The translations under genes were made by a program, and so were the position numbers. Below the pieces are notes generated by a model, which saw only the letters and a list, made by a program, of their open reading frames with translations, was not told the origin of the DNA and ran no database searches. From Verrucomicrobiia bacterium (GTDB lineage: Bacteria; Verrucomicrobiota; Verrucomicrobiia; Limisphaerales; Pedosphaeraceae), in NCBI GenBank assembly GCA_036268055.1, contig DATAUW010000023.1, forward strand, positions 1 through 50,631: 50,631 bases of DNA. Direction: 5' to 3'. This document shows positions 5,000 to 16,324 of this stretch, in pieces. Each line of letters begins with the position of its first letter. Position 1 is the stretch's first letter.

Positions 5000-5029
5000 T
5001 TGACTATACATAGCTTCGCAATGTATAGT
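5000..5029 (+). promoter_or_regulatory. padR promoter with embedded inverted-repeat operator
   Basis: A -35-like TTGACT at 5000-5005 and a -10-like TATAGT at 5024-5029 are 18 bases apart. Between and across them lies a perfect inverted repeat: ACTATACAT at 5003-5011, 9-base spacer, ATGTATAGT at 5021-5029. The operator therefore covers the end of the -35, the spacer and the whole -10 of the padR operon. PadR proteins commonly repress their own promoter through dyad sites of this kind. The assignment to this PadR is inference from position. Confidence 0.7.
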
Positions 5030-5061: not shown

Positions 5062-5394
5062 ATGATCACCAAGGAACTTGTCGCCGCCTCCGCCGAACCG
5101 TTGGTCCTCGCGCTGCTCGCGAAAGGCGAGAGTTACGGCTACGCCATCATCCAGGAAATAAAGAGTTTGTCGGACGGCGAAATCGAATGGACCGACGGCA
5201 TGCTTTATCCCGTGCTGCATCGCATGGAGGACAAAGGCTTGATCAAGGCGCGCTGGGCAGAATCGGAAACCGGGCGCAAACGAAAATATTATTCCATCAA
5301 ACAGGACGGCAAAAAGGCGTTGCAAAAACAGCGCGACCAATGGCTCACCGTGCACGGTACTTTGTCCAAACTCTGGAAGGAGAAATATGTTTAA
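5062..5394 (+). CDS. PadR-family transcriptional regulator
   Basis: A 110-residue winged-helix repressor of the short (PadR-s2-like) class. The N-terminal half carries the family pattern: LVLALLAKGESYGYAI, then EWTDGMLYPVLHRMEDKGLI with the recognition helix, then the wing with GRKRKYYSI. A short C-terminal helix provides the dimer interface. There is no ligand-binding extension. It is the first gene of a five-gene operon: its last 8 bases overlap the start of the next gene, which has an AAGGAG ribosome-binding site inside padR. The palindrome over its promoter suggests autoregulation and hence control of the four membrane proteins downstream. The inducing signal cannot be read from the sequence. 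Confidence 0.93.
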   Translation: MITKELVAASAEPLVLALLAKGESYGYAIIQEIKSLSDGEIEWTDGMLYPVLHRMEDKGLIKARWAESETGRKRKYYSIKQDGKKALQKQRDQWLTVHGTLSKLWKEKYV

Positions 5395-5845
5395 TCTCGA
5401 ACGCGAAATTGAAAATTGGCGCCGTGGAATGCTGCGCGGAGGCGTGCGTCCCGCGGAAGTATTGGATGAACTGGAAAGCCATCTCCGCGAAGACATCGAA
5501 CGAAAAATGAAGTCTGGTTTAAGTGAGCAACCGGCTTTTGATAGCGCAATCCAACAAATCGGCAACGCCGCCGCCCTCAAGCCGGAATTCAAAAATGGAA
5601 AGGCAAAAGAGGAACACGCAGTCTCGATCGCGCTGGCCGCCGCCGCCTGTCTTGTGAGCCTGTATGGAGGAGGCTTTGTTATCTACTGGTCGGTTATTGA
5701 TCTGCAAACACCGCCCGGCGAAAAATATCGAGCCGTCGCACTGGGATGTTTTCTACTCGGCACTGTCATGGTATTGAGCGCGAGCTACGCGGAATTTCTC
5801 TGCATAAAAAACCTAATGAAGCGGCGGGCGCTGAAGCTGAAATAA
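5387..5845 (+). CDS. Short paralogue 1: helical prefix domain plus two membrane segments
   Basis: This is the first of four tandem paralogues. Residues 1-70 form the shared amphipathic helical domain (MFNLEREIENWRRGMLRGGV, then LDELESHLRE and an AF..A...G motif). It resembles the 'permease prefix domain 1'/HAAS-type domains often encoded next to PadR. After it come only two hydrophobic segments (about 78-100 and 115-137) and a basic tail, and the protein stops at 152 residues. The other three paralogues are about 285-290 residues and continue into a membrane core. The tail aligns with their second membrane segment, so this copy corresponds to their first half; it is either truncated or a dedicated short form. 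AAGGAG at 5377-5382 is a good ribosome-binding site. Function is unknown; a membrane-bound signalling or partner role under PadR control is inference. Confidence 0.8.
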   Translation: MFNLEREIENWRRGMLRGGVRPAEVLDELESHLREDIERKMKSGLSEQPAFDSAIQQIGNAAALKPEFKNGKAKEEHAVSIALAAAACLVSLYGGGFVIYWSVIDLQTPPGEKYRAVALGCFLLGTVMVLSASYAEFLCIKNLMKRRALKLK

Positions 5846-5855
5846 CGAAGCGCAT

Positions 5856-6713
5856 ATGTTTAATCTCGAACGCGAAATAAAAGCTTGGCGCCGCGAAATG
5901 AGGCGCGCGGGGATTCGGACCTCAAATACACTCGACGAATTGGAAAGCCATTTGCGCGCCGAGTTTGAGATATTAACAGCCTCAGACGGAAACGACAAAG
6001 AAGCTTTTCAAACGGCAAAATCACACGTGGGCAAGTCCCATCTCCTAAGCGTCGAATTTGATAAAGTAAAAAATTCGAAGTGTTGGCCCGTCATTATTAG
6101 TCGGGCATTTTGGATCGTCTTGCTCGTCCTGTTCATTGGCATGTGGCCGGTGAAATCCATTCCCCAACATTCTTTCTTCGATTTTCGGACACTGGCGGTA
6201 GCGACCGTCTTTGCCTTATCTGCCGGCCATTCCGCGTGGTATTTGGCTGGCGTGCTGTGCATCGTCTTTATCTGTTTTCGTTCCACGCACACACTAACGA
6301 ACGCAAGAGCTGCCGCCTTGGAACAGGCGGTATGGGGCTTCAGCCTCCTCGCCGCGGGATTCGTTTTTCTCGCTTTCATACTGGGAATTATCGGAAACCA
6401 TCATTTCATGGGGGTCTTTTGGGACTGGAACTCTTTTTGGATATGGACACTGGTCCGGTTGATTTTTTTGGCCGGTTTTATTTTCGCACAAAGATTTGCT
6501 GGATGGAGCCAGCATAAAAACGTGGTGCTTTATTTGGCTGGCGCGCTGGTGATCAATTTGGCTTGGACGATTATCAGCACAACGGGCGTTAACATTATGG
6601 CAATTTGGCGGCTGATGTTTTGGCCCGCGTGGTTTTCATTGGCGGTTCAAGCGCTGGCTTTAGCTTGGACGGTGATGCCAGCGCGCCGTGAATCAACGAG
6701 AGAATTCATCTGA
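5856..6713 (+). CDS. Paralogue 2: helical prefix domain fused to CcsA/CcmC-like membrane core
   Basis: 285 residues. Residues 1-70 repeat the shared prefix (EREI..WRRE, LDELESHLR, AF at 50-51, G at 59). About six membrane segments follow (near 80-100, 112-140, 160-180, 195-215, 223-243, 253-275). Residues 160-247 read strikingly like the core of cytochrome c assembly proteins CcsA/CcmC: a GF.FL.FILGI helix, an N..G loop, the aromatic GVFWDW at 186-191 in the place of the family's G.YWSWDPKE, an RFAGW stretch, and a later helix ending GVN. The acidic DPKE part is not conserved (WNSFW). No other cytochrome c maturation gene (ResB, CcmF, thioredoxin) is nearby, so a heme role is a hypothesis only. 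It starts 10 bases after paralogue 1. Confidence 0.78.
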   Translation: MFNLEREIKAWRREMRRAGIRTSNTLDELESHLRAEFEILTASDGNDKEAFQTAKSHVGKSHLLSVEFDKVKNSKCWPVIISRAFWIVLLVLFIGMWPVKSIPQHSFFDFRTLAVATVFALSAGHSAWYLAGVLCIVFICFRSTHTLTNARAAALEQAVWGFSLLAAGFVFLAFILGIIGNHHFMGVFWDWNSFWIWTLVRLIFLAGFIFAQRFAGWSQHKNVVLYLAGALVINLAWTIISTTGVNIMAIWRLMFWPAWFSLAVQALALAWTVMPARRESTREFI

Positions 6714-6729
6714 ACCCCGGAGAACATTT

Positions 6730-7599
6730 ATGTTCGATCTCGAGCGCGAAATAAAAGCTTGGCGGCGCGAAATGATGCGCAACGGCGTGCGCACGACGGA
6801 AGTCTTGGACGAATTGGAAAGCCATTTGCGTAATGAGTTCACAAAATTGCTTTTGCCGCACACAACCGAGACGGTTGCATTTGAAAACGCACTCATGCGT
6901 GTAGGCAAACCCGCCGCCTTGTCCACCGAGTTCAACAAGGTCTCTAAAACAAAATTTTGGCCAGTCACCTTGATATGGATCGCATTTTTCGTGCTGTCGG
7001 CATGGTGGGATTTACGGTGTGCTTTTAATTGGTCCGATCGTCCGCTGCTGCTGGTCAACGCCGTCAGTTTGTTGTCCGGTTATCTGGCGTCGTACATGAT
7101 AGACGCCCTGTGCCTCATCTACATTTTGTATTGGCGATTCAGAACAGCGACTCCCGCTCGCGCGACCGCGATTGATCGAGCCGTGCTGACTCTCAACAAA
7201 ATAGCGATTGGGTTCGTGCTGATCGGATTCGCTTTTGGAATCGCCTACAACCGAACGGCAACCGGTCAATACTGGCACTGGCACATAGGCGAAATCGAAA
7301 CCCTCTTTCGACTCATGTGGCTCGTGATCTTCTCACTGATACTCCGATTTGGCAGTCTCTCGCAACGTGCAACCTCTTTGCTATTTATGGCCGTGGATCT
7401 GGTGGGCAATCTCACCTTGTCAGCGGCTGTGCTCGCGCTTTTTCCCGATCCCACCAGACACATTAAAGTGATGATCTCACACTTCGGATTTATCTATGTG
7501 TTGCAATTATTGGGCTTGATCATGGGTTCGTTGCCCGAACGAAATGAACCTTGGCGAATAAATCACCAAATGAATCGAGCGAGGAAGGCTCAATCGTGA
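6730..7599 (+). CDS. Paralogue 3: helical prefix domain fused to CcsA/CcmC-like membrane core
   Basis: 289 residues from the ATG at 6730. This start is preferred over an in-frame start 42 bases upstream because it begins at the same MFDLEREI as its siblings and has GGAG 7 bases upstream. Residues 1-70 are the prefix domain; membrane segments follow near 78-97, 106-136, 153-173, 190-207, 214-236 and 246-270. The CcsA-like stretch is best preserved here: GF.LIGFAFGI, loop NRTATG, then GQYWHW at 179-184 with Glu at 188 in the position of the conserved acidic residue, followed by an arginine-capped helix. The spacing of 16 bases from the preceding gene fits translational coupling within the operon. 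Function is unknown; it could be a degenerate heme-handling or quinone-interacting membrane protein. Confidence 0.78.
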   Translation: MFDLEREIKAWRREMMRNGVRTTEVLDELESHLRNEFTKLLLPHTTETVAFENALMRVGKPAALSTEFNKVSKTKFWPVTLIWIAFFVLSAWWDLRCAFNWSDRPLLLVNAVSLLSGYLASYMIDALCLIYILYWRFRTATPARATAIDRAVLTLNKIAIGFVLIGFAFGIAYNRTATGQYWHWHIGEIETLFRLMWLVIFSLILRFGSLSQRATSLLFMAVDLVGNLTLSAAVLALFPDPTRHIKVMISHFGFIYVLQLLGLIMGSLPERNEPWRINHQMNRARKAQS

Positions 7600-7608
7600 A
7601 AGGAAAAC

Positions 7609-8481
7609 ATGTTTGATTTCGAGCGCGAAATAAAAAACTGGCGGCGCGAACTCACGCGCGCCGGCATTCGATCATCCAGTGTGCTCGACGAACTCGAAGG
7701 CCACTTGCGCAATGAAACCGCCTCTCTCACCGCGTCCGGCAAACCAGGACCGGAAGCATTTCGCCTCGCCGCCTCGCGCATGGGAAATGCGTACGAGTTA
7801 CATGCTGAGTTTAAAAAATTAAAAGTGCGTCCGATTTGGCCAGTGACGATCGGAACAACTTTTTGGGGCGTGAGCGTCGCCCTGCTGGCCTTCGCGGTGA
7901 TTTCTTTGTTTGTAACTCGTGAGTCCTATCTGCGGATTCATCATGAGCCAATAGACCCGCTTGATCTTGCGGGAATGTTTGCCTTGTTCAGTGGATTTAC
8001 GGCTGAGTTTCTCGCGGGCGCATTTGCCATCAGTTACTTTTCCTATGAGCGGTTCCACGCGCTGACTTCCCGCCGCGAACAATCGCTGGAACAAGCCGTC
8101 ACACGCTTCAATTTAATCGCCGCCGGCCTGGTTGGCATCACGTTCATAGTGGGAATCTGCTCCAATCTTCAAAACGAAGGCTATCTTTATCATCCAAAGT
8201 TTCGTGAGGCGGGACATCTATGCAGTCTGGTGTGGCTATTTTCCTTCGCGTGGCTTTTAAGGTCAGGAAAATTCAACACTCGCGTAATCATGTTGCTATG
8301 CAGTGCGGGCAATATCGTCCTGGGCATTGATTGGTTTGTCGCGGGCTTTATCTCGAAAGAAGGCACGGGCGCGTTTTTTAGTTGGCGGTTTTGGCCGGTG
8401 CATGCATTCATCGCAATTCATTTTTTGGTTATCATTTTGGGAATGACCACGCTTAAGCAAGAGACGCTGGCGAAATCTTGA
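7609..8481 (+). CDS. Paralogue 4: helical prefix domain with diverged CcsA-like core
   Basis: 290 residues, with AAGGA at 7599-7603 as ribosome-binding site. The prefix domain is intact (MFDFEREIKNWRREL, LDELEGHLR, AF at 50-51). The membrane part keeps the architecture of paralogues 2 and 3, including LEQAV before the third segment and an AAGLVGITFIVGI helix. The aromatic loop, however, has changed to GYLYHP at 191-196, with no Trp pair. That suggests loss or change of the heme-type contact while the fold is retained. It is the last gene of the padR operon; 8482-8550 holds no clear terminator. Function is unknown. Confidence 0.77.
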   Translation: MFDFEREIKNWRRELTRAGIRSSSVLDELEGHLRNETASLTASGKPGPEAFRLAASRMGNAYELHAEFKKLKVRPIWPVTIGTTFWGVSVALLAFAVISLFVTRESYLRIHHEPIDPLDLAGMFALFSGFTAEFLAGAFAISYFSYERFHALTSRREQSLEQAVTRFNLIAAGLVGITFIVGICSNLQNEGYLYHPKFREAGHLCSLVWLFSFAWLLRSGKFNTRVIMLLCSAGNIVLGIDWFVAGFISKEGTGAFFSWRFWPVHAFIAIHFLVIILGMTTLKQETLAKS

Positions 8482-8550: not shown

Positions 8551-9981
8551 ATGCTCAAATCTCCGGCGATGGCTATTCTTCTGGCGCTCGGCATTGCGGG
8601 ATGTTCGTCGGATAATCACGCATCGGAGGCGAGCAAGAAAAAGTCCACCCCGAAGCCTTCGACCAACTCCATCGCCGCAGTTACTAATACCGCGCCGGAA
8701 TTTTTGCTGCACTCGTTTAAAAAAATCCAGATCTCCGATAAGTTCTGGAGCGAAGGCGCAAACTTCGGTGACTTCAATCGCGATGGCCAGATGGACATTG
8801 TCTCCGGCCCGTTTTGGTACGAAGGCCCGGATTTCAAAAAGCGCCACGAATATTATCCCGCCACTAAAACTTTCACGCGCACGAAAAGCGATGGCACGAC
8901 GGAAACCATTCCCGGCTTTGAAGGCGCGCTCGGCACGAAGAACACTTACTCGGACAATTTTTTCGCGTTCGTCTATGATTTCAACGGCGATGGCTGGCCG
9001 GACATTTTAATTTATAATTTTCCCGGGCTCGACGCGTCGTGGTACGAAAATCCCAAGGGCACGGACGGCCCGTGGCAGCGGCACATGATTTTTAACCAGG
9101 TGGACAACGAATCGCCGGCGTTCACGGACATCAATGGCGATGGCAAGCCGGACATCGTTTGCAATTCCGGTGGTTATTTTGGCTACGCGACCGCTGATTG
9201 GGAACATCCCGAGAAGCCGTGGAAGTTTCATCCGATCACGCCGAGCGGCGGCTGGCAAAAATTCACCCACGGCCTCGGTGTCGGCGACGTCAATGGCGAT
9301 GGCCGCATGGATTTGCTTGAGAAGGACGGCTGGTGGGAACAGCCGGCGTCGCTCGCGAACGATCCAGTGTGGAAATTTCATCCGTTCCCCTTCGCGCCCG
9401 AACGGGGCGGCTCGCAGATGTATGTCTATGACGTGAATGGCGACGGCAAAAACGATGTCATCACCGCAATCGCCGCGCACGGTTATGGCCTCGCGTGGTT
9501 CGAGCAAACCAACACGGCGGACGGCGGCATCACCTTCATCAAGCACGTGATTCTGCCCGAACAGACCACGAAAGAACGCCCGCCGCCGGGTCGTTATGGC
9601 GTGCAATTTTCCCAGCTTCATTCCGTCGCGCTGGCGGATGTGGATGGCGACGGGCTCATGGACATCATCACCGGCAAACGCTTTTGGGCGCATGGCCACA
9701 ACGGCCCCGATCCGGATTCCGACGGGCCCGCGGTGCTTTATTGGTTCAAGCTCACGCGTCCCGCGAAAGGCCGCGCGGAATTTGTGCCGCACATGATTGA
9801 TAATTATTCGGGCGTGGGCACGCAGGTCGTCGCGGGCAACATCAGCAACTCGAAATATCCCGACATCGTCGTCGGCAACAAACGCGGCACGTTCGTATTT
9901 TTGCATCAGACCAAAGCGGTGAGCAAAATGCAGTGGGATGCTGCGCAACCGAAAGCCGCCAGTTCCGCGCCTATGCAATAA
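8551..9981 (+). CDS. VCBS/FG-GAP repeat lipoprotein
   Basis: A predicted exported lipoprotein of 476 residues. From the ATG at 8551 a short signal peptide ends in the lipobox IAGC (Cys 18). A TTG 21 bases upstream (8530) is an alternative start but adds a non-signal-like leader. After a Lys/Ser/Pro/Thr linker the body contains six calcium-loop motifs of the D.N.DG..D type: DFNRDGQMD, DFNGDGWPD, DINGDGKPD, DVNGDGRMD, DVNGDGKND and DVDGDGLMD. These are diagnostic for FG-GAP/VCBS beta-propeller blades, each followed by a W or F-rich strand. Such proteins are abundant in Planctomycetes and Verrucomicrobia; ligands are generally unknown. The heme-binding/DUF1080 gene lies just downstream, so the two may act together on the outer surface, perhaps in carbohydrate breakdown (inference). 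Confidence 0.88.
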   Translation: MLKSPAMAILLALGIAGCSSDNHASEASKKKSTPKPSTNSIAAVTNTAPEFLLHSFKKIQISDKFWSEGANFGDFNRDGQMDIVSGPFWYEGPDFKKRHEYYPATKTFTRTKSDGTTETIPGFEGALGTKNTYSDNFFAFVYDFNGDGWPDILIYNFPGLDASWYENPKGTDGPWQRHMIFNQVDNESPAFTDINGDGKPDIVCNSGGYFGYATADWEHPEKPWKFHPITPSGGWQKFTHGLGVGDVNGDGRMDLLEKDGWWEQPASLANDPVWKFHPFPFAPERGGSQMYVYDVNGDGKNDVITAIAAHGYGLAWFEQTNTADGGITFIKHVILPEQTTKERPPPGRYGVQFSQLHSVALADVDGDGLMDIITGKRFWAHGHNGPDPDSDGPAVLYWFKLTRPAKGRAEFVPHMIDNYSGVGTQVVAGNISNSKYPDIVVGNKRGTFVFLHQTKAVSKMQWDAAQPKAASSAPMQ

Positions 9982-10019
9982 AAATGAAACGTATTTCAAA
10001 ACCACCATGCGCTTCTTCT

Positions 10020-10049
10020 CCCTCTCCCCGCGACAACGCGGGGAGAGGG
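10020..10049. repeat. Perfect GC-rich hairpin repeat
   Basis: CCCTCTCCCCGCG, loop ACAA, CGCGGGGAGAGGG: a perfect 13-bp stem, followed by TTGGGGTGAGGG. It belongs to the widespread GGGGAGAGGG...GGGTGAGGG intergenic palindrome seen in many bacterial genomes (general knowledge). It sits between the lipoprotein gene and the next start. An open frame reads through it, but the encoded LSPRQRGERVGVRG-type peptide is the typical repeat artefact. Confidence 0.8.
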
Positions 10050-10186
10050 TTGGGGTGAGGGGCTGTTTATCTCGAAAAGCCGCTGGTTCGGCGCTCCTGG
10101 GGCGCCGCTGTTGTTGGAGGGTAGTGGCGAATATTAAGCGAGGCGGCGCGTCAGTAAATGCAGACAAACCCGTTCGATTTTTCAAT

Positions 10187-13100
10187 ATGAAATTAGCGCA
10201 TAGAATTATTTTGCTGGCCGTGGCATCGCTTCCCTTCGTCATGAACGCCAGCCTCGCTCAAGAGATGCCGCCGCCGGACGTGATCAAGTTCGCCGGACTT
10301 TCGCCGGAAGATGCCGCGAAGGAAATGACGTTGCCGCCGGGATTCAAAGCCATTTTATTCGCCGGCGAACCAGATGTGATGCAGCCGATTTCATTTGCGA
10401 TTGATGATCGCGGGCGGATCTGGGTGGCGGAAGGTTATACTTATCCGAAGCGCGCGCCGGAAGGGCAGGGCAAGGATCGCATCGTGGTTTTTGAAGATAC
10501 GAATGGCGACGGCAAGTTCGACCGCCGCACGGTGTTCATCGAGGGATTGAATTTGGTCAGCGGCATGGAGGTGGGTTTCGGCGGTGTGTGGGTCGGCGCC
10601 GCGCCGTATTTCATGTTCATTCCGATGCAGGATGGCGACATGCCGAAGCCGAGCGGGCCGCCGCAAATTTTGCTCGATGGCTGGGGTTACCAGGACACGC
10701 ACGAGACGTTGAACACGTTTAAGTGGGGCCCGGACGGCTGGCTGTATGGCTGCCACGGAGTTTTCACAGTGTCAAAAGTCGGCAAGCCTGGCACGCCGGA
10801 AAATGAACGCACCACTGTGACGGCGGGCGTGTGGCGTTATCATCCGACGCGACACACGTTTGAATATTTTGCCGAAGGCACGAGCAATCCTTGGGGAATT
10901 GATTTCGATGAAAATGGCCAATGCTTTACCGAGGCCTGCGTGATTCCACATTTGTGGCACATGATTGAAGGCGGCCGCTACATGCGCCAGGGTGGCCAGC
11001 ATGTGAACCCTTATATTTTCGACGACATCAAAACCATCGCCGACCACTTGCATTACGCGGGCAACCAGGGGCCGCACGCGGCGAACGGACGCTCGGCTTC
11101 GATGGGCGGTGGACACGCGCACGCGGGCCTGATGATCTATCAAGGCGGCGCGTGGCCGACAAATTACAACGGTCAGATTTTCATGAACAACGTCCACGGC
11201 GCGCGCATGAACATGGATATTCCCGAACGCCAGGGTTCCGGTTTCGTCGGCCATCACGGGAAAGATTTTATTCTCTACAATGATTCGTGGTCGCAGGTGC
11301 TCAACATGCAGTCGGACCAAAACGGCTCCATGTACATGATTGATTGGTACGATAAAAATCGCTGCCACAGCACGGACGTGAATGCGCATGACCGCTCGAA
11401 CGGGCGCATCTTCAAAGTCGTTTACGGCGATACAAAATGGACGCCGGTGGATTTGCAGAAAAAGTCGGATTACGAATTGGTCGCCATGCTGGGCGCGGGA
11501 AATGATTTTTACGCGCGGCACGCGAGCCGGATTTTGCAGGAGCGCGCCGCCGCCGGCACGCTGAGCGCACAAGCCAAAGAACGCCTTTTGGGACTTGTCA
11601 GTCCAGACGGAAGCACTGCCGACACCTTGGTTTCGGCGACTTACGGCATCGCATCAAAAGACACTTATGAACTGCGCGCGTTGTGGACTTTCCATGACAT
11701 CGGCGCGTTGACGGAAGACCTCGCGTTGAAATTGTTGCGCAAGCCGAATGAATATATTCACGCCTGGACGATTCAATTTCTCGCGGAGGACAAAAATATT
11801 TCGGATGCGGTAATGAAAGAATTTGTTCGCCTGGCGCACGAGGACAAGTCGCCGGTGGTGCGGCTTTATCTGGCGTCCGCAATGCAGCGCGTTCCGGCGG
11901 CGCAGCGTTGGGATGTCGTCGAAGCGCTGGATGCGCACAGCGAAGACGCCAACGACCATAACCTGCCATATATGTATTGGTACGCGGCGGAGCCGTTGCC
12001 GACGGTGGATATTGTGCGTTCGTTGAAGCTGGCGGAGGCGTCGAAAATTCCGCGGATGTTGCAATTCACCGTGCGGCGCGTCGCCGCGATTGGCACGCCG
12101 CTCGCGTTTGGCTCGATCACAGAAAGTCTGGGGCGCGTCAGCGAAGATTCGCAGCGGCTGGATATTTTGAATGGCTTGAGCACAGCGTTGAATGGCCGCC
12201 GCAAGGCCGACATGCCGGAAGGCTGGTACGCGGTCGAAACCAAAATGAACGCGAGCGCAAATGCCGACGTGCGGGCGCAGGCAGAGGCGTTGTCGCTGGT
12301 GTTCGGCAGCCCGAACGCGCTGGCTTCGTTGCGCAAAACGGTGATGGACGGAACGGCTAAACCGAATGCGCGGCGCACAGCGGTGGCTTCGCTGTTGTCG
12401 GTGCATGACCCGGAATTGCCGGGATTGTTGCTGCAACTTTTGTCCAATCCCGAGCTTCAAGAATCAGCGTTGCGCGGGCTCGCGGCTTATGACGATGCGA
12501 AAACTCCCGGCGCGATTCTCGCGATTTATTCCACGCTGCCGCCGCCGCACAAACGCGATGCTTTGAATACGCTGGCATCGCGAATTGATTTTGCGAAACC
12601 GTTGCTCGATGCCATCGCGGCAGGCTCGGTGCCGCCCAAGGATTTGACGGCGGACGTGGTGCGGCAGTTGCGCGGATTGAAGAACACGGAAGTGGAGGCG
12701 GCAATTTTAAAATTGTGGGGCGTTTCGCGCGACAGTTCGGCGGACAAAAAAGCGGAGATCGCGAAATACAAAGGTATCTATTGGGCGGGCGGTTCGGTGC
12801 CGGGCGATGGCCCGCGCGGGCGGTTGGTTTTTTCGCGCACCTGCCAGCAATGCCACACGCTCTTCGGCACGGGCGGACACGTCGGGCCCGACCTCACCGG
12901 TTCGGCGCGCGCGGATTTGGATTATATCGTGTTGAACATCGTGGATCCGAACGCCGTGATCCCGAATGATTATCGCGCGTCCATTCTCGAGACGAAGGAT
13001 GGTCGCAGCATCACGGGCATCGTGACCAAGCAAGACGATCACGCGCTCACGGTCGTCACCGCCAACGAAACTCTGGTGCTGCCGCGCAACGAAATCACTT

Positions 13101-13792
13101 CGCAAACGCTCAGCCCGCTCTCGATGATGCCGGAAGGTCTGTTGCAATCACTCAGCGATCAGGAAGTGCGCGACTTGCTTTATTATTTGGGCCGGCCGGG
13201 GCAGGTTCCGTTTCCAACCGTAAGCGAGATTCCCGCGAACGCCGCGGATTTTTTCAACGATAAGGATTTGTCCGCATGGGATGGTGATACGAATTTGTGG
13301 CGCGTTGAGAATGGAGAAATCGTGGGCAGCACGAAGACGGGCTTGAAGCACAATGAATTTTTGAAGAGCCGCATGGAGTTGGAAAATTTCCGGCTGAGGT
13401 TGAAAGTGAAACTCACACCGAACAGCGAGAACAGCGGCGTGCAGTTTCACAGCGAGCGCAGCGGCGATTACAAAATGAAAGGTCCGCAGGCGGACATCGG
13501 TTTGGGTTGGTGGGGAAAATTATACGAGGAGAATGGCCGCGCGATCCTTTCCAACCAACCCGGCGATGCGTTCGTCAATACGAACGAGTGGAACACTTAT
13601 GAAATCCTCGCCGTGGACGGCAAGGTTCGCACGGCGCTCAATGGCCACCTATGCGTGGACATGGACGATGCACAAATCGCGCGCCGCGGTATCACGGGTT
13701 TGCAGATGCACGCGGGCGGCCCGATGGAAGTGCGGTTTAAGGAACTGAAACTGGAGTTGAATCCGAAGTTTGAAATGATGACGGTGAAGTGA
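10187..13792 (+). CDS. PVC-type heme-binding CxxCH protein with C-terminal DUF1080 domain
   Basis: An exported 1,201-residue multidomain protein. The ATG at 10187 gives a proper signal peptide (MKLAHRIILLAVASLP, then ASLAQ). Longer in-frame starts read through the hairpin repeat at 10020 and are rejected. Order of domains: (1) beta-propeller of the PVC 'membrane-bound dehydrogenase' type, about 30-430 (LPPGFKAILFAGEP, DDRGRIWVAE, EDTNGDGKFD); (2) HEAT-like helical repeats, about 430-860; (3) a cytochrome c domain with CQQCH at 886-890 and a candidate axial Met in PLSMMPEG; (4) a DUF1080 / 3-keto-disaccharide hydrolase-like jelly roll, about 1015-1195 (NDKDLSAWDG, NSGVQFHSER, WNTYEI). The combination suggests periplasmic oxidation and cleavage of sugars, the known theme for DUF1080, but no substrate can be inferred. 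A REP pair follows directly. Confidence 0.92.
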   Translation: MKLAHRIILLAVASLPFVMNASLAQEMPPPDVIKFAGLSPEDAAKEMTLPPGFKAILFAGEPDVMQPISFAIDDRGRIWVAEGYTYPKRAPEGQGKDRIVVFEDTNGDGKFDRRTVFIEGLNLVSGMEVGFGGVWVGAAPYFMFIPMQDGDMPKPSGPPQILLDGWGYQDTHETLNTFKWGPDGWLYGCHGVFTVSKVGKPGTPENERTTVTAGVWRYHPTRHTFEYFAEGTSNPWGIDFDENGQCFTEACVIPHLWHMIEGGRYMRQGGQHVNPYIFDDIKTIADHLHYAGNQGPHAANGRSASMGGGHAHAGLMIYQGGAWPTNYNGQIFMNNVHGARMNMDIPERQGSGFVGHHGKDFILYNDSWSQVLNMQSDQNGSMYMIDWYDKNRCHSTDVNAHDRSNGRIFKVVYGDTKWTPVDLQKKSDYELVAMLGAGNDFYARHASRILQERAAAGTLSAQAKERLLGLVSPDGSTADTLVSATYGIASKDTYELRALWTFHDIGALTEDLALKLLRKPNEYIHAWTIQFLAEDKNISDAVMKEFVRLAHEDKSPVVRLYLASAMQRVPAAQRWDVVEALDAHSEDANDHNLPYMYWYAAEPLPTVDIVRSLKLAEASKIPRMLQFTVRRVAAIGTPLAFGSITESLGRVSEDSQRLDILNGLSTALNGRRKADMPEGWYAVETKMNASANADVRAQAEALSLVFGSPNALASLRKTVMDGTAKPNARRTAVASLLSVHDPELPGLLLQLLSNPELQESALRGLAAYDDAKTPGAILAIYSTLPPPHKRDALNTLASRIDFAKPLLDAIAAGSVPPKDLTADVVRQLRGLKNTEVEAAILKLWGVSRDSSADKKAEIAKYKGIYWAGGSVPGDGPRGRLVFSRTCQQCHTLFGTGGHVGPDLTGSARADLDYIVLNIVDPNAVIPNDYRASILETKDGRSITGIVTKQDDHALTVVTANETLVLPRNEITSQTLSPLSMMPEGLLQSLSDQEVRDLLYYLGRPGQVPFPTVSEIPANAADFFNDKDLSAWDGDTNLWRVENGEIVGSTKTGLKHNEFLKSRMELENFRLRLKVKLTPNSENSGVQFHSERSGDYKMKGPQADIGLGWWGKLYEENGRAILSNQPGDAFVNTNEWNTYEILAVDGKVRTALNGHLCVDMDDAQIARRGITGLQMHAGGPMEVRFKELKLELNPKFEMMTVK

Positions 13793-13933: not shown

Positions 13934-15430
13934 CTAGATACCGAAAACCTCTATCAGCGACGGGATGCTGGCGGCGGCGATGATGACGCCGGTCTGAATT
14001 TTTTTTCTACGGGAATTTAATTCTCCGCCGCGAAAATTGAAAAAAGACATGCAGCAAACCAAGGCAAACATCGAACACAGCCATTCTAATACCATCGTGC
14101 GCGTCAGGCCGTTTCGTGCGTCCCCTACGGGAAAATAATTCTTTAATAAAAATAATAAAAATGGCAGATAATAATTCAAAAGTCCCATCAAGGCGGCACA
14201 GGCGGTGATCAGCAGAAACGCAAAAATGATTGCTCGCATGGCGTTAAGCGAAATGGACGAGGCGAAAACGAACGCGCCGAACGCCAGCACATAAGCCATC
14301 GTGAACAGGGCGAAGTCGAGAAGGTCGGAGCTGTCGGATCCTTTGAGGCCGTGTTCCACGGCAAACCAAAGCACGGGTATTATCACTCCGAGCACAATTA
14401 GCGAGGCGATTGAAACACCCATTTTTACTAACCATTGTTTGAGTGGCGATATCGGAAGAGTCAGTTGCCAGCCGATGGTCCCCCAGTTGCGTTCTTCCGC
14501 CGTTGAAATCGCGCCAAGGAGGATGGGGAGCAAAACAATATATATGGCAGCGTCGGCGAATCGCAATGCGTTGGCCGTTTCCGATTTCGTAAGCCTCCAG
14601 TCAATTGTCCCGAAGACGAATATCACAAACGCCACAAATGCAACCAGGTAAACGGAGCGTTGGAGTTGAAGTTCTTTGCGGATGAGGCTGGCGAGTGGAC
14701 TGGTGTAGCTGGGGAGTAATTTCTTCAGCGGCTGGCTCAAGGCGGCTTCCCACGATTCCGGCAGCTTCACTTCCTGCGAGTGCGAATCAATCACTTGAAA
14801 ATTCATGAACACGCAATAGCCAAACCAACAGACCGTCGCGCAATAAATGGCGCCGGGAACGCCTATCGCCCAGCGGGGATGTTGCTGAAAAAAGTCCTGC
14901 AAGAACGGCACGTCAGGATGCGAGGTATATTGTGCCGCTCCCCAGCAGATAAAGAAAAAACCACCGGCTAAAGCGAGCGGCATCAGCACCATCAGCGCAG
15001 CGCCGCCGATGAGATTCTTGCTTATGAGCGGCATTAATGAGGCGGAACAAAAGGCGATCACAATCTCCGGTCCAAAAACACGAATCATTTCATGGAGGGT
15101 AACGATTTCCCCGCCGCGATATAAAAATTCCAAGCTAAGCATCGCGGCACCGGCAGCGAGGATCAACGCGACCCCCAGGACTAGCAGTTTCTCGAACCAA
15201 ACTTGCCGCCGTGAAACCGGTTGTGCCAGCAACAAGAGCAGGGTGCGGGAGTCTAGTTCACCGCCAAATGAACTGGCCGCCAGCAGACATGCGCAGCCCG
15301 CGAAGACGAGGTTAATAATCCCGACGGTGTCATTTCCCCGAAGCAGCCACGCGAGCGCCGCAGGCAAAAACACCGCGAGGCAAAAAGGGCCCCGCAACAA
15401 CCGCATTTCTTTTAAGGTTCGCGTGTTCAT
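13934..15430 (-). CDS. ABC-2 type transporter permease
   Basis: A 498-residue integral membrane protein with about twelve hydrophobic segments arranged as two similar halves. The N-terminal half has the ABC-2 pattern of a cytoplasmic segment SSFGGELDSRTLLLLLAQPV followed by SRRQVWFEKLLV. The second half repeats it as STAEERNWGTIGWQLTLPIS followed by LKQWLVKMGV. The protein therefore looks like a tandem permease in one chain. The start follows the ATPase stop by 6 bases and has GGAG upstream. It forms the membrane pore for the ATPase encoded immediately upstream in the GntR operon. The substrate is not evident; YtrA-type systems are linked to cell-envelope stress and antibiotic response in Firmicutes (family knowledge). 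Confidence 0.87.
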   Translation of the reverse strand: MNTRTLKEMRLLRGPFCLAVFLPAALAWLLRGNDTVGIINLVFAGCACLLAASSFGGELDSRTLLLLLAQPVSRRQVWFEKLLVLGVALILAAGAAMLSLEFLYRGGEIVTLHEMIRVFGPEIVIAFCSASLMPLISKNLIGGAALMVLMPLALAGGFFFICWGAAQYTSHPDVPFLQDFFQQHPRWAIGVPGAIYCATVCWFGYCVFMNFQVIDSHSQEVKLPESWEAALSQPLKKLLPSYTSPLASLIRKELQLQRSVYLVAFVAFVIFVFGTIDWRLTKSETANALRFADAAIYIVLLPILLGAISTAEERNWGTIGWQLTLPISPLKQWLVKMGVSIASLIVLGVIIPVLWFAVEHGLKGSDSSDLLDFALFTMAYVLAFGAFVFASSISLNAMRAIIFAFLLITACAALMGLLNYYLPFLLFLLKNYFPVGDARNGLTRTMVLEWLCSMFALVCCMSFFNFRGGELNSRRKKIQTGVIIAAASIPSLIEVFGI

Positions 15431-15436
15431 ATTCTC

Positions 15437-16324
15437 CTATTGCAAGGCGGCCACGAAAATTTCTTCGAGCGTGAGAGCCTCAGTGGTCACCGTTTCGGGG
15501 CGCAGGGCGTTGAGTTGCGCGAGGACTTTTTCGGATTCACCATTAACGATGAGTTCGACTTCGCGGCCTTCACGCCGCACGCGTTTTGCGCCGGGAAAAT
15601 CCGTGACGGCCGGCATGGCGGCAAAGCGCGCGCGGATTTTTTTGTAGCGCGAGCGCGCCTCGTCGGCGTTCAGCGACACCGTTTCACGGCCATTGTCTAT
15701 GATGGTAAAATCGTCAATCAACCCTTCAAACTCGGTGATCAAATGCGTGGAAACAAAAACGGTGCGGCTCGGATCAGCGGCTTGATACGCGCCGATGACG
15801 GTCTGGATGAATTCGCGCCGCACGATGGGATCGAGGCCGGAGGTCGGCTCGTCGAGAATCAGCAAATCGGGTTCGGGACAGACCGCGCCGATCAGGGCGA
15901 CCTGGGTCTTCTGGCCTTTGGACAATGAATTCGCTTTCTGTTTTTCGTCGAGGCGAAATTGGCCGAGAAGTTCGCGTTCAGTTTTTTTGTTCCAATGTTT
16001 GCGGAAGGACGCGAGATAATCCAGCGTGTCGCGCACGGTCATCCACGGGTAAAACGCGACGAAATCCGGGACGTAAGCGATGCGCGATTTGACGGCGACT
16101 TCATCCTTGCGCGGGTCGAGGCCGAAGACGCGCACGGAGCCGGACGAGGGTTGCAACAGATTCAACAGGCACTTGATGGTCGTGGTTTTGCCCGCGCCGT
16201 TGCGGCCGAAAAAGCCGTAGCATTTGCCGGGTTCGACGCGCAGGCTGAGGTCATTGACGGCATCCATCTTTCCGTATTTGCGGACGAGATGCTTGATTTC
16301 GATTGCGGGTGTTTCGGTGTTCAT
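15437..16324 (-). CDS. ABC transporter ATP-binding protein
   Basis: A 295-residue ATPase. Walker A GRNGAGKTT at 40-48, signature motif LSKGQ at 134-138 (Lys replaces the usual second Gly position, as is common in the YtrB/CcmA-like drug and envelope exporters), Walker B LLILDEP at 154-160 followed by the D-loop SGLD, and the H-loop His in STHL near 193. The C-terminal about 70 residues form the small regulatory extension typical of this branch. The start codon overlaps the stop of the GntR gene as ATGA, so translation is coupled to the regulator. It powers the permease encoded next. Confidence 0.93.
   Translation of the reverse strand: MNTETPAIEIKHLVRKYGKMDAVNDLSLRVEPGKCYGFFGRNGAGKTTTIKCLLNLLQPSSGSVRVFGLDPRKDEVAVKSRIAYVPDFVAFYPWMTVRDTLDYLASFRKHWNKKTERELLGQFRLDEKQKANSLSKGQKTQVALIGAVCPEPDLLILDEPTSGLDPIVRREFIQTVIGAYQAADPSRTVFVSTHLITEFEGLIDDFTIIDNGRETVSLNADEARSRYKKIRARFAAMPAVTDFPGAKRVRREGREVELIVNGESEKVLAQLNALRPETVTTEALTLEEIFVAALQ

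What the first reader, a model, noticed from the sequence alone, without database searches (positions are those of the whole stretch)
5062..8481. PadR operon of four tandem membrane paralogues with a CcsA/CcmC-like core
One regulator controls four adjacent copies of the same architecture: a conserved amphipathic prefix (MF.(L/F)EREI..WRRE...G.R....LDELE.HLR) followed by a six-segment membrane part. In copies 2 and 3 that part carries a GF.L....GI helix, a G.(F/Y)W.W loop and a following Arg-capped helix, in the order found in cytochrome c assembly proteins CcsA/CcmC. PadR-linked prefix domains are known on ABC permeases; a fusion to a heme-handling-like core, amplified fourfold and without ResB, CcmF or thioredoxin partners, would be a different system. 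The combination is seen directly; the heme connection is inference.
Basis: partly seen in the sequence, partly recalled or inferred. Interest (0 to 1): 0.78.

Follow-up and report, generated by a model that had tools for sequence, protein, structure and literature searches.

The report
PadR switch with CcsA-derived membrane sensors
A small self-controlled gene switch in a Verrucomicrobiota-type bacterium makes four membrane proteins, three of which reuse the core of a heme-handling enzyme (CcsA) that here has lost most of the residues that grip heme, which points to an old metabolic machine turned into a membrane sensor.

Summary
The operon is real: PadR (5062-5394) plus four genes sharing an N-terminal HAAS/permease-prefix domain. 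Copy 1 is short, with two membrane helices and no CcsA part.

A model built only from 34 CcsA cores hits them at E 1.6e-8, 1.9e-8 and 2.8e-7; of 102 prefix-bearing ORFs it hits 13. Foldseek puts CcmC first for the model of copy 2, with modest scores. PadR-linked relatives occur in 9 other genomes of the order (of 320 searched, own included) and in two named MAGs, one a planctomycete; 4 of 12 keep every CcsA histidine and the WWD motif.

The heme link is not supported here: all three copies lack P-His1, TM-His2 and the WWD aspartate at the aligned positions. P-His2 is also missing; copy 3 has a nearby histidine.

The genome shows one PadR and one copy of the likely operator, an inverted repeat inside the promoter, so the switch seems to control only itself.

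Best reading: a PadR-HAAS sensor pair of described kind with a sensor recruited from CcsA. Sister operons fuse the prefix to pieces of TatC, Clp and prepilin peptidase. New variant; interest 0.56.

The parts
5000..5029 (+). promoter-like site (-35 TTGACT 5000-5005, 18-nt spacer, -10 TATAGT 5024-5029) with an embedded perfect inverted repeat ACTATACAT-N9-ATGTATAGT (5003-5029): proposed PadR operator
   Evidence: the scan itself finds promoters no more often than shuffles; core pattern unique in the genome with up to 3 mismatches; 10 sites in 58 relatives, 0 for the reversed-pattern control, 8 of the 10 at PadR genes and 2 near contig ends
5062..5394 (+). PadR-family repressor (110 aa), the only PF03551 match found in the genome
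   Evidence: PF03551 E 7.2e-25; 1 match in G000
5387..5845 (+). copy 1: HAAS/perm_prefix_1 domain plus two-helix membrane tail (152 aa); overlaps PadR by 8 nt
   Evidence: NF038403 E 7.4e-10; 2 hydrophobic segments; no CcsA hit; 48 of 81 loci, this one included, show an 8-nt overlap
5856..6713 (+). copy 2: HAAS domain plus degenerate CcsA/CcmC-like six-helix core (285 aa)
6177..6683 (+). CcsA-derived core of copy 2 (about residues 108-276)
   Evidence: CcsA-core HMM 116-276 E 1.6e-8; hhalign
6408..6443 (+). remnant WWD loop of copy 2 (MGVFWDWNSFWI)
6730..7599 (+). copy 3: HAAS domain plus degenerate CcsA-like core (289 aa from ATG 6730)
   Evidence: CcsA-core HMM E 1.9e-8
7045..7548 (+). CcsA-derived core of copy 3 (about residues 106-273; WWD remnant GQYWHWHIGE)
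7609..8481 (+). copy 4: HAAS domain plus degenerate CcsA-like core (290 aa)
   Evidence: NF038403 E 1.5e-7; CcsA-core HMM E 2.8e-7
7951..8460 (+). CcsA-derived core of copy 4 (about residues 115-284; WWD remnant GYLYHPKFRE)

Best explanation
This is a self-contained PadR-HAAS membrane-sensing switch whose sensor was recruited from cytochrome c biogenesis protein CcsA. SHOWN: one PadR gene, then four HAAS-prefix proteins, the first overlapping PadR by 8 nt, behind a promoter-like site that holds a conserved inverted repeat; in copies 2-4 the HAAS domain is fused to a core that descends from the CcsA/CcmC heme-handling family; 12 of 12 full-length relatives of the same fusion outside this genome have PadR upstream, and they run from forms with every CcsA ligand to forms with few; the three window copies have lost P-His1, TM-His2 and the WWD Asp, and P-His2 at its aligned place. 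INFERRED: PadR binds the repeat and represses its own operon; the HAAS domains sit in the cytoplasm and contact PadR; a change in the membrane core releases or captures PadR. Because the operator and the PadR are single in the genome, the output is the amount of the membrane proteins themselves, a closed loop. In ligand-keeping relatives the signal would be heme or the state of cytochrome c assembly. In the window copies it is more likely something else (membrane state, another hydrophobic ligand, or assembly with each other or with true CcsA), because heme cannot be held in the standard CcsA way.
For: Homology: P0003 alone finds CcsA-type proteins in 22 of 58 genomes through residues 108-283 (E 2.8e-7 to 9e-4; open frames 622-834 aa in 20 of them; five were read and are CcsA: L013, L014, L017, L018, L038). 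Window-only profile vs three CcsA: hhalign probability 97.2, E 4.4e-11, 158 columns. An HMM from 34 CcsA cores hits 13 of 102 HAAS ORFs including all three window copies; the other 89 give nothing at E<=10 under HMMER's default filters. Profile of 7 fusions vs PDB: the only hits below 0.001 are CcsA 25vk, CcmC 7f02, CcsBA 7s9y. Fold: Foldseek ranks CcmC 1st and 2nd (probability 1.00, E 5e-3 and 1e-2); VIA top five are CcmC twice, CcsBA twice, CcmF (Z 13.4-11.7, next row 10.4). One group: 15 fusions against 27 CcsA on one side of a 100/100 branch. Switch: PadR directly upstream in 76 of 81 loci and upstream of all 12 HAAS-CcsA proteins outside this genome; operator; single PadR. Ligand loss. 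Precedent: Listeria PadRs LstR and LltR mainly regulate their own operons (lltR operon: DUF1700 membrane protein), and the PadR-controlled FtsW/RodA homologue Lmo0421 could not replace FtsW or RodA (PMC6624303 passages); HAAS-PadR proposed as an alternative to two-component systems (PMC11237479 passages).
Against: No binding of PadR to the repeat, no HAAS-PadR contact and no signal was tested. Pfam's CcsA family PF01578 does not hit any window copy, and the three-copy profile finds nothing in PDB up to E 10. Foldseek gives no match at E<=0.001 and TM-scores of only 0.38-0.46 for CcmC; the models were guided by relatives with canonical motifs, and at Z 12-13 helical bundles can match by arrangement alone (note). 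Pfam's HAAS model is barely reached (1 of 100 proteins at E<=0.01), and the published GxP motif was seen in 39 of 124 proteins in a loose search, so 'HAAS' rests on NCBIfam perm_prefix_1 and context. The promoter scan finds no more sites than shuffles (2 vs mean 3.0). The inside/outside assignment is assumed by alternation; loop charges agree only loosely. Whether the window copies are still under selection was not tested; no same-genus genome appeared in the sets searched.
Confidence: 0.6

Rival explanations
1. Bait or dummy-subunit surveillance: each HAAS protein carries a copied piece of one of the cell's own machines (CcsA core, TatC helices 5-6, Clp N-domain, prepilin peptidase) that docks with the real partners of that machine and reports their availability to PadR.
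For: A HAAS-TatC hairpin stands beside HAAS-CcsA in one operon (L028): its tail matches TatC of the same genome at E 4.4e-20 in a small database; the Pfam TatC hit itself is below cut-off (E 4.9e-4). TatC helix 5 contacts TatB (PMC3712464 passages). HAAS-Clp_N in 6 of 100, HAAS-prepilin peptidase in 1 of 100. The genome keeps a normal CcsA and TatC.
Against: The CcsA cores are far diverged from CcsA (stem 2.6 changes per column), unlike the TatC piece. Most of the 100 HAAS proteins match no such machine. No interaction is shown.
Confidence: 0.15
2. Heme sensor or heme handler: copies 2-4 still bind heme through displaced or new ligands and tune heme export or cytochrome c maturation.
For: Ancestry and fold. 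Histidines lie in or next to the old WWD loop in all three copies, in the first outer loop of copies 2 and 4 (columns 109 and 115-116), and in copy 3 two columns from the P-His2 place. A protein with a CxxCH motif is encoded two genes downstream (the Pfam cytochrome hit is below its cut-off).
Against: P-His1, TM-His2 and the WWD Asp are absent at their places in 3 of 3, P-His2 in its column in 3 of 3. The other His positions differ between copies. No heme gene was seen to recur beside 11 relatives read by eye.
Confidence: 0.13
3. ABC-permease accessory: the proteins are ordinary PadR-controlled 'permease prefix' permeases or ABC-2 membrane subunits.
For: perm_prefix_1 is named for permeases; a weak PF12730 ABC2_membrane_4 hit in copy 2, E 0.008.
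Against: The hit is below its cut-off and spans residues 63-121 only. No ATPase gene in this operon, none noticed by eye beside 11 relatives. The CcsA profile is far stronger.
Confidence: 0.04
4. Chance: the membrane part is a generic hydrophobic six-helix bundle and the CcsA likeness is convergent or compositional.
For: Pfam does not call it; Foldseek E and TM-scores are modest.
Against: 89 other HAAS ORFs, many with several membrane segments, do not score, and the best of 900 composition-keeping shuffles is E 0.26. PadR-linked relatives keep complete CcsA motifs.
Confidence: 0.02

Closest known systems
HAAS-PadR sensor-regulator pairs (PMC11237479), with Listeria LltR-Lmo0600 and LstR-Lmo0421 operons as studied cases (PMC6624303)
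   Same: PadR gene next to a protein with a helical prefix and a variable membrane part; own operon as main target; Lmo0421 is a homologue of an envelope enzyme family (FtsW/RodA) without its function. That Lmo0421 is the HAAS-FtsW/RodA example of PMC11237479 is inferred from its citation
   Different: Membrane part is CcsA-derived; three tandem CcsA-type paralogues; the passages name FtsX, FtsW/RodA, VanZ and uncharacterised 6/4/2-helix parts, and the main text has no occurrence of CcsA, cytochrome or heme
CcsA/CcsBA, CcmC and CcmF heme-handling proteins (PF01578; TIGR03144, TIGR01191)
   Same: Six-helix order, WWD-type loop between helices 3 and 4, Glu after the loop in copies 3 and 4; best NCBIfam match of the family is the System II protein (TIGR03144), though below its cut-off in the member shown
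   Different: Window copies lack P-His1, TM-His2 and the WWD Asp, and P-His2 in its column; no large periplasmic domain; N-terminal HAAS domain; no ResB or Ccm gene among nine neighbours scanned
PadR-linked FtsX/MacB permeases with permease prefix domain 1 (NF038403)
   Same: Same N-terminal domain family; PadR neighbour (FtsX/MacB case from PMC11237479 passages)
   Different: No ABC ATPase, no FtsX or MacB domain
VanZ lipocone HAAS systems (PMC12419801, passage)
   Same: A membrane domain of known ancestry sits in the sensor position of a HAAS/PadR pair
   Different: VanZ rather than CcsA

Membership tests
HAAS-PadR pair | standalone PadR-family wHTH gene next to the prefix protein | tested here: met
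   PF03551 E 7e-25, 8-nt gene overlap; PadR directly upstream in 76 of 81 loci
HAAS-PadR pair | N-terminal HAAS/prefix domain | tested here: met
   NF038403 above cut-off in copies 1 and 4, below it in copy 2 (E 0.03), no hit in copy 3; copy 1 finds copies 2-4 at E 1e-18 to 3e-16. Pfam PF22564 HAAS not reached by window copies. That perm_prefix_1 and HAAS are one superfamily is inferred
HAAS-PadR pair | GxP motif in the third helix | tested here: inconclusive
   copy 3 has GKP; copies 1, 2 and 4 do not; 39 of 124 family proteins in a loose search
HAAS-PadR pair | HAAS domain binds PadR and transmits the signal | not testable with these tools
   needs a binding experiment
Heme-handling proteins (CcsA/CcmC/CcmF) | sequence descent from the family core | tested here: met
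   not by the PF01578 model itself
Heme-handling proteins (CcsA/CcmC/CcmF) | CcmC/CcsA fold | tested here: met
   copy 2 model pLDDT 83.7; Foldseek CcmC first, E 5e-3, TM 0.40/0.46; VIA Z 13.4, 3.1 A, 143 residues. Weak: the model used relatives' sequences; copies 3 and 4 were not modelled
Heme-handling proteins (CcsA/CcmC/CcmF) | periplasmic histidine P-His1 (part of the family definition in PMC6299221) | tested here: not met
   0 of 3 window copies (T, N, G) vs 12 of 12 relatives
Heme-handling proteins (CcsA/CcmC/CcmF) | periplasmic histidine P-His2 | tested here: inconclusive
   0 of 3 in the aligned column vs 8 of 12 relatives; copy 3 has a His two columns away in a poorly aligned loop, copies 2 and 4 have none near
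Heme-handling proteins (CcsA/CcmC/CcmF) | intact WWD domain | tested here: not met
   W.W kept in copies 2 and 3, Asp in none; copy 4 YLYHPK
CcsBA System II synthetase | transmembrane histidine TM-His2 of CcsA | tested here: not met
   Q, L, L in the window copies; His in 5 of 12 relatives
CcsBA System II synthetase | ResB/CcsB partner | not tested
   none among nine neighbouring proteins; the genome was not searched for ResB
Heme-handling proteins (CcsA/CcmC/CcmF) | heme binding | not testable with these tools
   needs heme stain or spectrum
FtsX/MacB prefix permease | ABC permease domain and linked ATPase | tested here: not met
   no such domain or gene in the operon

The most novel reading that the evidence does not exclude
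PadR-HAAS arrays of this order are built by copying pieces of the cell's own housekeeping machines (CcsA core, TatC helices 5-6, Clp N-domain, prepilin peptidase) onto a PadR-binding prefix, so that each product is a dummy subunit that senses the state of one machine and reports it to a repressor. In this genome the CcsA dummy was tripled and freed from standard heme binding.
Probability: 0.18. Interest if true: 0.82.

Novelty: new variant of a known kind. Interest (0 to 1): 0.56.

Why it matters
It adds a heme-handling fold to the sensors used by PadR-HAAS switches, with a graded series from fully ligated forms to forms with few ligands, so that the step from enzyme to sensor can be tested protein by protein. 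The ligated relatives (L131, L129, L088, L090) are ready candidates for a membrane heme or cytochrome c assembly sensor that works without a histidine kinase. The sister fusions to TatC, Clp_N and prepilin peptidase suggest a general way in which bacteria make sensors from parts of their own machines. The self-controlled, single-target circuit gives a direct reporter assay.

Tried and rejected
Pfam and NCBIfam on the window proteins alone gave no CcsA; the three-copy profile found nothing in PDB; the relation shows through single-copy search of relatives' CcsA, a CcsA-built profile, or intermediates. An ABC-2 permease reading (PF12730, E 0.008) was rejected. A regulon beyond the operon was sought and not found: one operator place in the genome. 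Neighbours of 11 HAAS-CcsA loci were read by eye from a mechanical ORF pick that also contains spurious frames: I saw none recur besides PadR and other HAAS genes, a weak test. Copy 1's tail finds L106 at E 2e-4 and L109 at 0.1 among the HAAS ORFs and no TatC up to E 1: unexplained. A phylum-wide search drew 387 genomes, scored few candidates in each (mostly 6), and found no full-length fusion but the window's own; a partial hit in G346 (residues 1-172) turned out to have the prefix without a CcsA hit. A survey of Planctomycetota around L130 did not run. The first paper search for HAAS was swamped by unrelated words and was narrowed; PadR plus CcsA gave 11 papers, and none of the titles and abstract starts listed concerns such a fusion. 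Supplementary tables of PMC11237479 could not be read, so a CcsA fusion may be listed there. Not done: ResB search, PadR-HAAS complex prediction, selection test, models of copies 3 and 4. VIA of the L131 model ranks cytochrome b561 level with CcsBA (Z 12.4 vs 12.1; CcmC 10.8), so fold alone does not single out CcsA for that protein; its sequence does (E 5e-31). On checking, I found histidines near the old P-His2 place of copy 3 and in the first outer loop of copies 2 and 4; I therefore softened the ligand-loss claim, moved the heme rival from 0.10 to 0.13 and the best explanation from 0.62 to 0.60.

Full report
OBSERVATION. The window is contig C23 of a 5.1-Mb genome (96% complete). A PadR gene (5062-5394) overlaps by 8 nt the first of four same-strand genes (5387-5845, 5856-6713, 6730-7599, 7609-8481). 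All four share about 70 N-terminal residues; NCBIfam calls this 'permease prefix domain 1' above cut-off in copies 1 and 4. Copies 2-4 are 285-290 aa with five or six hydrophobic segments; copy 1 is 152 aa with two.

WHAT THE MEMBRANE PART IS. Copy 2 alone, searched in 58 genomes (own included), matched two kinds of protein: other prefix proteins, and, through residues 108-283 only, proteins in 22 genomes at E 2.8e-7 to 9e-4, with open frames of 622-834 aa in 20 of them. Five of the latter kind were read and are ordinary CcsA (for example WGRFWGWDPKENG). The three window copies as a profile against three CcsA gave hhalign probability 97.2, E 4.4e-11 over 158 columns. An HMM built only from 34 CcsA cores (picked by their WWD motif) hit copies 2, 3 and 4 at 1.6e-8, 1.9e-8 and 2.8e-7 (database size set to 10,000). 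Among 102 prefix-bearing ORFs it hit 13, and 89 gave nothing at E<=10 under default filters. Of 900 shuffles that keep local composition 5 reached E<=10, the best 0.26. Against this, PF01578 itself does not call the window copies, and their profile alone finds nothing in PDB. With seven family members the PDB hits below 0.001 are CcsA (25vk), CcmC (7f02) and CcsBA (7s9y) only.

INTERMEDIATES. Full-length fusions of the same kind are in 10 of 320 genomes of the order, own included: 13 proteins, E 7e-118 to 2e-99 (at most 7 candidates per genome were scored). The next matches are two pieces, one cut by a contig start (G664) and one remnant without a prefix in frame (G007), and then CcsA proteins from 1e-37 on. 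Two more come from a named collection: a Verrucomicrobia MAG (L127) and a Planctomycetota MAG (L130). All 12 fusion proteins outside this genome have PadR upstream, one with a short HAAS gene between (L028). NCBIfam matches the family best to the System II protein (TIGR03144, 9 of 12 members, best 2.7e-15) rather than CcmC (4 of 12, best 1.1e-7), below the curated cut-offs in the member shown. In a tree of 15 fusions and 27 Verrucomicrobiota CcsA cores the fusions lie on one side of a 100/100 branch; copies 2 and 3 pair (97/86) and copy 4 joins them (93/92), so they look like local duplicates; the branches are long and their exact places unsure. In 387 genomes drawn from the phylum the only full-length fusions found were the window's own (few candidates scored per genome, mostly 6).

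LIGANDS. The heme-handling family is defined by two periplasmic histidines flanking the WWD domain, and CcsBA adds two membrane histidines (PMC6299221, passages). Of 12 non-window fusions, P-His1 is kept by 12, P-His2 by 8, TM-His2 by 5, W.W by 10; four (L129, L131, L088, L090) keep all, with the WWD Asp (9; L085, L088 and L090 read). In the three window copies P-His1 is T, N, G; TM-His2 is Q, L, L; the WWD Asp is N, H, K; W.W survives in copies 2 and 3, the Glu after the loop in copies 3 and 4. P-His2 is absent from its column in all three, but that loop aligns poorly and copy 3 has a His two columns off. Other histidines sit in or near the WWD loop in all three, and in the first outer loop of copies 2 and 4. 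So the standard heme grip is gone; binding through other residues is not excluded.

FOLD. AlphaFold2 on an alignment of 12 fusions gave copy 2 a mean pLDDT of 83.7 (pTM 0.70), with a helical prefix and six long helices. Foldseek ranks CcmC first and second (probability 1.00, E 5e-3 and 1e-2, TM 0.38-0.46), and CcsBA fourth (probability 0.89) after a designed protein at 0.25; nothing reaches E 0.001. VIA-align's top five are CcmC, CcmC, CcsBA, CcsBA, CcmF (Z 13.4-11.7). With the prefix placed inside, alternation puts the WWD loop outside, as in CcmC; loop charges agree only loosely. The models were guided by relatives with intact motifs, so they support, not prove, the fold of the window copies. 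For L131, which keeps its ligands, cytochrome b561 ranks level with CcsBA.

THE SWITCH. The promoter-like site 5000-5029 (TTGACT-18-TATAGT) holds a perfect 9-bp inverted repeat, ACTATACAT-N9-ATGTATAGT. The core ATACATAGC-N4-CAATGTAT recurs upstream of PadR in sister operons of both CcsA and non-CcsA type: with one mismatch allowed, 10 sites in 58 genomes, none for the reversed pattern, 8 at PadR genes and 2 near contig ends where the gene could be cut off. In this genome the near-identical pattern occurs once with up to three mismatches, and PF03551 finds one PadR. Of 81 related loci, 76 have PadR directly upstream (within 50 nt or overlapping) and 48 show an 8-nt overlap; of the other five, at least two are cut by a contig end (identical sets were collapsed, some loci of one genome held twice may remain). 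Loci hold one to four prefix genes. The circuit seems to control only itself.

HOW IT WOULD WORK. HAAS-PadR pairs were proposed as an alternative to two-component systems in which a sensor domain changes the HAAS domain and thereby PadR (PMC11237479, passages). In Listeria two PadRs mainly regulate their own operons (about 140-fold for lmo0421 on loss of LstR), and Lmo0421 could not stand in for FtsW or RodA (PMC6624303, passages). The present operon fits that frame with a CcsA-derived sensor. The closed loop suggests that the membrane proteins are both sensor and product. For relatives with all ligands a heme or cytochrome c assembly signal is a direct prediction; for the window it is not.

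A WIDER PATTERN. Of 100 prefix proteins scanned with Pfam (the 102 less two short ones), 10 match the CcsA family, 6 Clp_N, 1 prepilin peptidase and 1 TatC (details, where the TatC hit of L028 is below cut-off and that of L023 is E 0.07). The TatC piece in L028, beside a HAAS-CcsA gene, matches the TatC of its own genome at E 4.4e-20, and L023's matches TatC at about 1e-9 (small database). TatC helix 5 contacts TatB (PMC3712464, passages). This is the ground for the dummy-subunit reading, which remains speculation; most prefix proteins match no such machine.

NOVELTY. Searches and the passages read show no report of a PadR-HAAS-CcsA fusion; the main text of PMC11237479 has no occurrence of CcsA, cytochrome, heme, Clp or TatC. 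Supplements were not read. Verdict: a new variant of a known kind.

Noticed in passing
L028:6925-7335 (-) and L023:6353-6784 (+): HAAS domain fused to the last two transmembrane helices of TatC; L028's tail matches TatC of its own genome at E 4.4e-20 in a small database. L028 also holds a HAAS-CcsA gene in the same operon.
   Followed up: partly
L022:428-1192 (-), L023:4946-5686 (+), L026:5135-5872 (-), L031:4987-6144 (+), L098:2952-4097 (+): HAAS domain fused to a Clp N-terminal domain, PadR-linked; Pfam confirms L022, L031 and L098, L023 and L026 by reading the sequence; 6 of 100 HAAS proteins match Clp_N.
   Followed up: partly
L095:3356-4420 (-): HAAS domain fused to a type IV prepilin peptidase (PF01478, E 5.6e-18) at the head of a four-gene HAAS array.
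   Followed up: no
L130:6001-6864 (+): PadR-linked HAAS-CcsA fusion in a MAG titled Planctomycetota, with P-His1, P-His2 and W.W kept, which suggests transfer between phyla or a binning error.
   Followed up: no
L184:1495-1866 (-): Remnant of a ligand-keeping HAAS-CcsA gene without the prefix in frame, in a same-family genome (G007) that has HAAS arrays of other types.
   Followed up: no
window 5387-5845: The two-helix tail of copy 1 has only a weak relative (L106, E 2e-4) and no family; its role beside the CcsA-type copies is unexplained.
   Followed up: partly
window 9938-13792: Large protein with DUF7133, a CxxCH motif (cytochrome hit below its cut-off) and a 3-keto-disaccharide hydrolase domain, two genes downstream of the operon.
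   Followed up: no
window 13934-16324 (-): ABC-2 type permease and ABC ATPase pair on the opposite strand, with no visible tie to the operon.
   Followed up: no
window 6385-6425, 7270-7300, 8185-8220: All three CcsA-type copies carry histidines in or next to the old WWD loop, at different positions in each; they could be new metal or heme ligands or chance.
   Followed up: no
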